Source: Candidatus Omnitrophota bacterium
Lineage (GTDB): Bacteria; Omnitrophota; Gorgyraeia; 2-02-FULL-51-18
DNA length: 35,860 nucleotides
Assembly (NCBI GenBank): GCA_016206825.1
Contig: JACQQY010000113.1
Span: 1 to 35,860 of the forward strand
Direction: 5' to 3'
Position numbers and translations under genes: made by a program. How positions within the stretch are numbered: the first letter of the stretch is position 1; each line of letters opens with the position of its first letter. Of this stretch, positions 1 through 2,573 are shown piece by piece. The notes below the pieces were generated by a model. It ran no database searches. It saw only the letters and a list, made by a program, of their open reading frames with translations, and had not been told where the DNA came from.

Positions 1-2428
1 CAAGGCGCACATAGGTTTTGTCAAACTTGCTCCTGACACCAGACAAAGCTTCGGCATTCACAGTTTCCTTTTCATGGAATGACTTTATCGCTTCCTCAAA
101 AAAGCCCGCCTCGGTCTCAAAATCGTTCACGGTCTTAACGGTTTCCGCCGTCACCATTCCCACAAGCCCAAGCTGGCGGATGAGGCTTTGAACGACTTCC
201 AACTTGTCTTTCTCGGTCACGGCGGCTCTCGCCTTCCGCAGTTCCGCAAGCCTACTCTCAACGCGGCTGTAAAGAAGCTGGATCTTGTCTCTTTGTTCTA
301 TGGGCGCTTTGGTAAGTTCCTTAGACTCCGCTTTCTCCTTCGCCTCGCGGAAGATCTTCAAAGCCTCTTCGCCCTTTACTATCTCTTTTCTGATTTGGAC
401 CTCTTTTCCGTCAACAAAGACGGCCGTAACGAGAAAGCTTTCCCCGTTGACATTGAAATGAAATAAAAGTTGGTCTTTTCCAGCGTAAACAACCTCCATG
501 GTGTCCGCCACGGCTCCGCCGAGGAGGTAAGAGCGGGCGGCGAGAGAACTTTCCCCCTCCGCTTCCCCCGCCCCCCGCCCCTCCCACAAGGGGAGGGGAG
601 CAATGGAGGAAGCAATTCCTCCCCCCTTGGGACCAGTTCCTCCCCCCTTGTGGGGGAGGTTAGGAGAGGGGGAACCACTTACCTCCTTATATCTTTTCCC
701 ATACAACTCCCTCGCCCGTGCCACTTCCCTCTGCATTCTCTCATTCTTCTCCGCGTCATTCTCATAAGGCGTCTTTTCAATCGCTTTAAACGCCACCTGG
801 GCGAAGAAATGTGCGGTCATCTCGAGTTTTGTCCGCAGGACTTCTTCCGACTCGGCAAACTTCCGGAAGGACGCCTCGGAGTTGGTGATGAGCGTGAGGT
901 AGGGGCGCTTCGCCTTTTTATTGAAGCGCGGAAGAATGACGATATAAGACGTGTGGTTGCCCTTCAAAAGCTCCGTGATGCCTTTGGAGTGAAAGCCGCC
1001 GGTGACGAGGCAAGCGGTCGTTTGGCCGTTTTCCCTCATCTGCTTGACGGTATTGTTGAGGAGAGCCTCATTCCTCTTCTCGGCGGAGTCGTAGAACCGG
1101 ATGGATTCGGGGATGTCGCGGAAGATGGCTTCCAGCTCTCCCCCCTCCCACCAAAACACGCCATATCTCTTACCCTTCTCCTCCAGAAACTTCTTGAACG
1201 TCTCCAACTTAAACTCATCTCGATGCTGGCGATAATAAGCCAACCCGCCGCTTGAGAGCTTCACTTCGAAAAGATCGCGGATCACCTGCGCCTGGCGGAC
1301 CAACTGGTGGAGCTCGCGCTCCTCCTTGCTGCGGAAAAGCCTCTCACGGATTTTCTCCTCGAGCTGGAGGACCTCGTCCTTTAAAGCATCGATGTCGATG
1401 GATTCATAAAGCGTCATGTAGTCGGTGTAGCGGACAAGATGGGGATAGGCGGAAAGGTCGACGCCTTCCGAACGGGCGAGGTCCAAAAGGTAGGAAGAAA
1501 AAGCGCCTTGGGAAATTTTGCCGAGCTTATATGCGACGCTTTCGGCCACAAGCGTCTCAAGCTTTTCCCGCGGGAGAGCTTTGCTCAAGCTTTCCAAAAG
1601 CGCCTCCCGCTCGCGGTTGGCCTTTTCAAAATCGATTCCTTTCTCCGCCGCAATGGAGCCAAGGAGACTGCCGATGTTCGCATACGACGCGTAAGGAATG
1701 CGGTATTTGTCGGCGAAACCGGAGATGATTTTCCAGCGTTCGCTGAACTTGATCCCGTCGTTGTTATTGGAAACGCCGTTTTGATTAAGCTCCCTCAGCT
1801 CCTCCGAGTAAACGGCCTTCTCAAAACGCTCCAAGGCGGCAAGGAGCTTTTCGATCCGCGAGAAATTCTCCTTTTTCTTCTCCAAATTCCGCTTAAAATC
1901 CCTCAGGTTCTCCTCATAAAGCTCGTTGTCGTCCATCCCGTAGACCGCGACTTTGCCGCTCGTCATCGCGGAGAGAAACTCGCCCGCGGAGAGCTTGCCC
2001 GCCTGCATCAAGTAATTGGCGGTATTCCGTTTCATGTCCTCATAAGGGAAAGCCGCAAGCAAAGACGTGTCGATGGGGCCTTCCATTCCCTCAATGCCGA
2101 TGGTTTTGACGTTGTAATTGGCGATCAGGTTCTCAAGGATATGGACAATGGATTCCTGGGCGTTGAAATTGTCGTGGATGTCTTTGACGTTGATGATGGT
2201 TTCTCTACTGCTGGTTTGGTTGGCTTCTTTCACAAGGCCGATATTCTTAGGGACGGAAAAGGAGCGGAGATCCACCTGCGAGGGGGCGCTTAAATCCACA
2301 ACCCCAAACGCCGCCTCTTGGCACAAAAAGGCCGTCGTCACCGCCAACGAAACAAAACGCAAAACGAAGCGCTTCCGGCTTCGTTGGGTTGTTCGAAGCT
2401 TAAGTTGTAAGCCAACACCGTCTCTCAT
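1..2428 (-). CDS. Putative exported TraB/ChaN-like (EreA/ChaN/Tiki-type fold) protein with coiled-coil C-terminal part; partial, 3' end outside window
   Basis: Manual translation from ATG at 2428 gives 809 codons with no stop: MRDGVGLQLKLRTTQRSRKRFVLRFVSLAVTTAFLCQEAAFG..INVKDIHDNFNAQESIVHILENLIANYNVKTIGIEGMEGPID..VYGMDDNELYEENL..ACLVTGGFHSKGITELL. SD-like GAGGT about 4 nt upstream. Signal-peptide-like N-terminus. Family call rests on DIHxNxxxQ / IGIEGxxG / TGGFHxxG motifs. Confidence 0.85.
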   Translation of the reverse strand, partial: MRDGVGLQLKLRTTQRSRKRFVLRFVSLAVTTAFLCQEAAFGVVDLSAPSQVDLRSFSVPKNIGLVKEANQTSSRETIINVKDIHDNFNAQESIVHILENLIANYNVKTIGIEGMEGPIDTSLLAAFPYEDMKRNTANYLMQAGKLSAGEFLSAMTSGKVAVYGMDDNELYEENLRDFKRNLEKKKENFSRIEKLLAALERFEKAVYSEELRELNQNGVSNNNDGIKFSERWKIISGFADKYRIPYASYANIGSLLGSIAAEKGIDFEKANREREALLESLSKALPREKLETLVAESVAYKLGKISQGAFSSYLLDLARSEGVDLSAYPHLVRYTDYMTLYESIDIDALKDEVLQLEEKIRERLFRSKEERELHQLVRQAQVIRDLFEVKLSSGGLAYYRQHRDEFKLETFKKFLEEKGKRYGVFWWEGGELEAIFRDIPESIRFYDSAEKRNEALLNNTVKQMRENGQTTACLVTGGFHSKGITELLKGNHTSYIVILPRFNKKAKRPYLTLITNSEASFRKFAESEEVLRTKLEMTAHFFAQVAFKAIEKTPYENDAEKNERMQREVARARELYGKRYKEVSGSPSPNLPHKGGGTGPKGGGIASSIAPLPLWEGRGAGEAEGESSLAARSYLLGGAVADTMEVVYAGKDQLLFHFNVNGESFLVTAVFVDGKEVQIRKEIVKGEEALKIFREAKEKAESKELTKAPIEQRDKIQLLYSRVESRLAELRKARAAVTEKDKLEVVQSLIRQLGLVGMVTAETVKTVNDFETEAGFFEEAIKSFHEKETVNAEALSGVRSKFDKTYVRL
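548..676 (+). repeat. GC-rich double-hairpin palindromic element, copy 1 (inside CDS 1-2428)
   Basis: Hairpins CCCCTCCC-ACAAG-GGGAGGGG (578-598) and CCTCCCCC-CTTGT-GGGGGAGG (639-659); ends GGAGGTTAGGAGAGGGGGAA. Confidence 0.85.
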
Positions 2429-2445: not shown

Positions 2446-2552
2446 TTTCCCCCTCTCCTAACCTCCCCCACGAGGGGGGAGGAACTAACCCAGAAACCCA
2501 ACCATTCCCAACCACTATTCCCCTCCCTTTATGGGAGGGGCGGGGGGAGGGT
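2446..2552 (-). repeat. Same palindromic element, copy 2 (intergenic, inverted relative to copy 1)
   Basis: Hairpins CCTCCCCC..GGGGGGAGG (2462-2482) and CCCCTCCC-TTTAT-GGGAGGGG (2520-2540); TTCCCCCTCTCCTAACCTCC at 2447-2466 is the exact reverse complement of the copy 1 end. Confidence 0.88.
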
Positions 2553-2573
2553 GATCTACCTCACTAACCCCTA

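What the first reader, a model, noticed from the sequence alone, without database searches (positions are those of the whole stretch)
548..676. Palindromic element inserted in frame within a coding sequence
The double-hairpin element sits inside the exported-protein gene and is read through as SPSPNLPHKGGGTGPKGGGIASSIAPLPLWEGRGAGEAEGESS without breaking the frame, adding about 43 low-complexity residues. It also carries an internal 21-bp (7-aa) duplication of TTCCTCCCCCCTTG (616-629 and 637-650). Protein-coding palindromic repeats are known mainly from Rickettsia (RPE), so this is a notable parallel.
Basis: partly seen in the sequence, partly recalled or inferred. Interest (0 to 1): 0.7.

Follow-up and report, generated by a model that had tools for sequence, protein, structure and literature searches.

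The report
REP-like palindrome pair inside a gene
A short, self-complementary repeat of a kind that usually sits between bacterial genes has landed inside a gene without breaking it, and in this little-known group of bacteria (apparently Omnitrophota) the same has happened repeatedly, in loops and linkers of unrelated proteins.

Summary
Window 563-674 carries two REP-like units (15-nt pyrimidine tail, 8-bp perfect stem, 5-nt loop) facing each other, read in frame inside an ORF of at least 809 aa. The 21-bp duplication is real (18/21 identical). The genome has 17 units at 10 sites; five sites lie in frame inside ORFs: four secreted-protein paralogues (one copy within an intein) and a DegT aminotransferase, whose copy adds 11 aa and is missing from 28 alignable orthologues of other genera. 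A distant genome, G221, has more, including one in the turn of a TPR. Copies are read in different frames, so spread as DNA, not a useful peptide, explains them. This is what Di Nocera et al. 2013 described as intragenic REPs; 'mainly Rickettsia' is too narrow. The units bear neither the GTAG nor the CGTC tag. A RAYT link is not supported: G221 has 42 units and no Y1 transposase, and no convincing unit lies near 50 Y1 genes. For the window copy, 'adds 43 residues' is unproven: the only orthologue covering the site has an unrelated linker just 5 aa shorter. Best reading: an untagged REP-like family, patchy in this phylum, tolerated in coding loops when length and frame fit.

The parts
637..674 (-). 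REP-like unit A: tail TTCCCCCTCTCCTAA, stem CCTCCCCC / loop ACAAG / stem GGGGGAGG, then AA
   Evidence: 64.8 bits, E 2.8e-15; 37-38 of 38 nt identical to copies on contigs C60, C10, C91, C80 and to 2447-2484
563..600 (+). REP-like unit B (TTCCCCCGCCCCCCG, stem CCCCTCCC / loop ACAAG / stem GGGAGGGG, AG), hairpin facing unit A (tails outside: head-to-head heterodimer)
   Evidence: 57.6 bits, E 2e-13
609..650 (-). Imperfect 21-bp (7-codon) tandem duplication that includes the 3' arm of unit A; reads KGGGTGP KGGGIAS
   Evidence: exact 14-mers at 616-629 and 637-650; 18/21 over the full period
2..2428 (-). Host ORF, at least 809 aa, open at the contig end; hydrophobic N-terminus; element at residues ~585-627, in the linker after the conserved N-terminal domain
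   Evidence: open frame; homologues in 30 of 39 genomes searched, own included, mostly over the first ~530 residues; orthologue in G010 aligns on both sides of the element
2447..2555 (.). Second head-to-head dimer of the same family (A 2447-2484 +, B 2518-2555 -), between the stop of the giant gene (2574) and the start of the host ORF (2428): the ordinary extragenic position
   Evidence: 64.6 and 54.0 bits

Best explanation
The segment is a composite (head-to-head pair) of two units of a multicopy REP-like palindrome. It entered the linker of a secreted-protein gene as DNA and survives because the linker tolerates extra residues and because the insert keeps the frame. Unit A has a stop in only one of three frames on each strand, so read-through is easy when the length is a multiple of three. 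SHOWN: repeat family, two-unit architecture, arm covariation, in-frame reading, absence from the orthologue, the same kind of in-frame insertion in other genes and in another genus, and use of different frames by different copies. INFERRED: that copies move as DNA hairpins (single-stranded or cruciform), that they are neutral baggage rather than peptides under selection, and that selection removed frame-breaking insertions. The enzyme that spreads them is not identified; a Y1/RAYT transposase in the same genome is not needed for the units to be there now.
For: 17 units at 10 sites in the own genome. Five sites lie inside ORFs, all in frame. DegT aminotransferase (C55): a single unit reads ISPSPCPSHRGRGI, net +11 aa; 28 alignable orthologues from other genera lack it (one further row, L099, was the wrong frame), as do the three solved homologues whose alignments were shown. 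G221: two-unit inserts of 30 aa in a TPR protein and at the same site in two paralogues. Different frames: SPSPNLPHKGGG (window) against SSPLVGEVRRGG (C91, C80), from the same DNA unit. Stems: 65 units, 99.2% of cells paired, 56 two-sided changes and no one-sided change; 441 C-G and 72 T-A pairs, no G-U. Patchy: 63 of 386 genomes of the phylum, 2 of 13 in the family.
Against: The empty site of the window copy itself is not resolved: the single orthologue (44% identity) has its own unrelated linker of similar length, so insertion here rests on repeat identity and on the other copies. No target-site duplication or mobilising enzyme was found. Only good matches were aligned, by a model trained on Watson-Crick stems, which favours perfect arms. 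In-frame cases are biased towards survivors.
Confidence: 0.85

Rival explanations
1. A RAYT-type Y1 (HUH) transposase moves these units in trans, as proposed for GTAG REPs/REPINs.
For: Units are short hairpins in opposed pairs; the own genome has one Y1_Tnp gene (C64:3566-3898, 342-aa frame, with a DnaA_C match just under its cut-off).
Against: G221 (94% complete) has 42 units and no Y1_Tnp; G004 and G139 have units and none. Of 50 Y1_Tnp loci scanned with flanks, only one weak match (16.4 bits) lay near a gene. Units lack the GTAG tag.
Confidence: 0.2
2. The palindrome is kept for an RNA role in the mRNA (terminator, stability or processing hairpin), and its coding is incidental.
For: The strand folds strongly (z -3.8); the 2447-2555 copy sits just after a giant gene's stop, where REPs are often found.
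Against: No Rfam family reaches its gathering score. Arms differ only by full Watson-Crick swaps with no G-U, whereas G-U was often seen in GTAG REPs thought to act as RNA (PMC3733652). Half the own-genome sites lie mid-gene.
Confidence: 0.12
3. The peptide itself was recruited: a protein-coding palindromic element whose encoded stretch is useful to exported proteins.
For: Four of five own-genome intragenic sites are in one paralogous exported family.
Against: Copies use different frames and encode different peptides; one sits in an aminotransferase and one in an intein; most A units are 95-100% identical as DNA irrespective of frame.
Confidence: 0.05
4. The segment is a native low-complexity linker or an assembly join, not an insertion.
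For: The orthologue in G010 has a linker of nearly the same length; the genome is a draft of 120 contigs.
Against: Units of the family occur at 9 other sites; the ORF is open and homologous on both sides; DegT orthologues show a clean extra segment.
Confidence: 0.04

Closest known systems
Intragenic REPs of the GTAG and CGTC superfamilies (Di Nocera et al. 2013, PMC3733652)
   Same: Short stem-loop units, mostly opposed dimers, some wholly inside ORFs of unrelated proteins; inserts encode 20-30 aa as dimers and up to 43-82 aa as clusters; proposed to sit in linkers or loops.
   Different: No GTAG or CGTC tag; long pyrimidine tail TTCCCCCTCTCCTAA; no G-U pairs in stems; a different phylum; no transposase linked.
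Rickettsia palindromic elements (RPE-1, RPE-4, RPE-6)
   Same: Palindromes read in frame inside functional-looking genes, plus extragenic copies.
   Different: RPE-4 and RPE-6 are CGTC-type; this unit is not. Few copies here (10 sites).
REPIN/RAYT systems of Pseudomonas and E. coli
   Same: Opposed REP pairs behaving as one unit.
   Different: No RAYT flanked by units was found; unit-rich G221 lacks any Y1 transposase.

Membership tests
REP-like palindromic repeats (broad sense) | 20-40 bp stem-loop present in many copies | tested here: met
   38-nt unit, 8-bp stem; 17 units in own genome, 42 in G221; few compared with classic REPs
REP-like palindromic repeats (broad sense) | Frequent dimers in opposite orientation | tested here: met
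   7 of 10 own sites are opposed pairs, in both arrangements; tails-inside pairs prevail elsewhere
REP-like palindromic repeats (broad sense) | Mostly extragenic | tested here: inconclusive
   Yes in other genomes: 4 of 47 sites intragenic in G221, G159 and G179 by a mechanical rule; own genome 5 of 10 intragenic
GTAG REPs | Terminal GTAG next to the stem | tested here: not met
   Stem is preceded by CTAA or CCCG; on the other strand TTAG/CGGG follows it
GTAG REPs | RAYT gene flanked by units | tested here: not met
   G221 has no Y1_Tnp
CGTC REPs (includes RPE-4, RPE-6) | CGTC tag, A-T first stem pairs, CCA tail | tested here: not met
   First two stem pairs are C-G in all 60 distinct units; no tag
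CGTC REPs (includes RPE-4, RPE-6) | 8-9 bp stem, 4-5 nt loop, no dedicated transposase | tested here: met
   8 bp, 5 nt; no linked transposase
Protein-coding palindromic elements (behaviour) | Read in frame inside a gene whose orthologues lack it | tested here: met
   DegT: 28 orthologues lack it; window copy: one orthologue lacks it, net size unresolved
Protein-coding palindromic elements (behaviour) | Host protein is made and works | not testable with these tools
   needs expression data

The most novel reading that the evidence does not exclude
This phylum carries a third REP superfamily, untagged and C-rich, spread without a Y1 transposase (for example by replication template switching at perfect DNA hairpins, which would also explain arm swaps without G-U intermediates), and it repeatedly extends protein loops and linkers in frame.
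Probability: 0.2. Interest if true: 0.65.

Novelty: new variant of a known kind. Interest (0 to 1): 0.42.

Why it matters
It extends in-frame intragenic palindromes to a poorly known phylum and gives a clean example, a DegT enzyme lengthened by 11 residues between two conserved motifs, of how repeat DNA can lengthen proteins. A unit-rich genome without any Y1 transposase makes the question of how such repeats spread directly testable.

Tried and rejected
Rfam: nothing above gathering. More orthologues over the window site: only G010 among 99 genomes. Literature search for the unit sequence: no relevant paper. G221 site L226 was set aside as probably upstream of the real start of its gene.

Full report
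What is there. The window is contig C93 of a draft genome of 1.29 Mb, 120 contigs, 84% complete. On the minus strand an ORF of at least 809 aa runs from 2428 to the contig end.

Anatomy. The segment is two related 38-nt units. Unit A is TTCCCCCTCTCCTAA + CCTCCCCC-loop-GGGGGAGG + AA; unit B has the stem CCCCTCCC/GGGAGGGG. They face each other, tails outside. A 21-bp imperfect tandem duplication (18/21) includes the 3' arm of A. A second pair, 2447-2555, lies between the giant gene's stop and the start of this ORF, so one contig holds one extragenic and one intragenic copy.

Stem evidence. Across 65 units from many genomes, 99.2% of stem cells pair, and 56 cells change on both sides while none changes to another standard pair on one side only; the covariation score exceeds all 500 shuffles and all slid controls. 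All standard pairs are C-G or T-A; there is no G-U on this strand, and the three C-A cells would read as G-U on the other. The caveat is selection of good matches by a model with Watson-Crick stems. The pattern suggests that the palindrome is maintained or copied as DNA.

Copies in the own genome. Model R1 finds 17 units at 10 sites. Five lie inside ORFs with no stop: the window ORF; C37 (inside a Pfam intein domain of a paralogue); C91 and C80 (further paralogues); and C55, a DegT/DnrJ/EryC1 aminotransferase (E 7e-123). In C55 the unit adds a net 11 residues between the conserved HYPxPIHxQ.AY and FPVTE motifs. Of 29 other rows in the alignment, one (L099) is a wrong frame and is disregarded; the other 28, all from other genera, lack it, as do the three solved homologues whose alignments were shown.

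Another genome. G221, in a different family of the class, has 42 units. Of 24 sites inspected, three are convincing in-frame two-unit inserts of 30 aa: one in a TPR protein, between YLY and INLAIEHYSRAL, where a TPR has its helix turn (position judged from the TPR consensus, established knowledge), and two at the same site of two paralogues, probably one insertion before duplication. G159 and G179 show 0 of 11 and 0 of 12. Intragenic fractions are thus 5/10 (own), 4/24 by the mechanical rule in G221 (one doubtful), and 0/23. A separate comparison, 5/10 against about 1/29 loci from other genomes, gives Fisher p = 0.002; numbers are small and the classification is mechanical.

Why DNA and not peptide. 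The same A unit is read as SPSPNLPHKGGG in the window and SSPLVGEVRRGG in C91 and C80, with near-identical DNA. Unit A is open in two of three frames on each strand; unit B less evenly so.

What is not shown. For the window copy the gain is unresolved: G010, the only orthologue that spans the site (44% identity), has an unrelated linker of 43 aa against 48 aa.

Mobiliser. The own genome has one Y1_Tnp gene with no unit nearby. G221, G004 and G139 have units but no Y1_Tnp hit; G004 and G139 are incomplete, G221 is 94% complete. Scans of 50 Y1 loci found one weak unit. The enzyme could have been lost or lie in missing sequence, so this lowers, but does not exclude, a RAYT model.

Known or new. 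In-frame intragenic REPs are described in several bacteria, with dimers encoding 20-30 aa and the suggestion that they lie in linkers or loops (PMC3733652). The behaviour is therefore known. The unit fails the tags of both described superfamilies, so it is filed as a new variant of that kind. Whether this C-rich unit has been described elsewhere could not be settled: the literature search covered open-access text only and figures are not searchable.

Noticed in passing
G000:C91:12168-12196 and G000:C37:3867-3892 (L054, L053): CGTC-type REPs (GTCATTCCCGCAATGTTTTAGCGGGAATC; CGTCATTCTGAGCGCCAGCGAAGAATCCA) also lie in frame inside two of the same paralogous ORFs; the search pattern has 12 hits in the genome, about 8 of them REP-like, and 0 in the reversed control.
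   Followed up: partly
G000:C37 ORF residues ~447-483 (L053): A further palindrome-like insert, AAATCCCCCCTGCCCCCTTT...GGGGGCAGGGGGGATTT, is read in frame in the same ORF.
   Followed up: no
G000:C37:2500-6733 (L053): An intein splicing domain (PF14890) sits in a secreted-protein paralogue and itself hosts a REP pair.
   Followed up: partly
window 2574-35858 (-): Giant ORF of at least 11,094 aa with four Laminin_G_3 stretches and, by eye, an ATPase-like motif PAGGGKT.
   Followed up: no
own genome, 17 matches of the window ORF: The host ORF belongs to a large paralogous exported family with matches in 30 of 39 genomes searched; no Pfam family reaches its cut-off.
   Followed up: partly
G000:C10 and C56, next to units (L004, L007): Another repeat, around TAGGGGCAGACCTGCGTGTCTGCCC / CACATAGGTCTGCCCCTACA, lies near some units.
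   Followed up: no
G004 loci L061-L071: A related but distinct family (CCTCCCCTAACCCCTCCTTCGTAAGGAGGGGAA, often followed by a second palindrome), mostly extragenic.
   Followed up: partly
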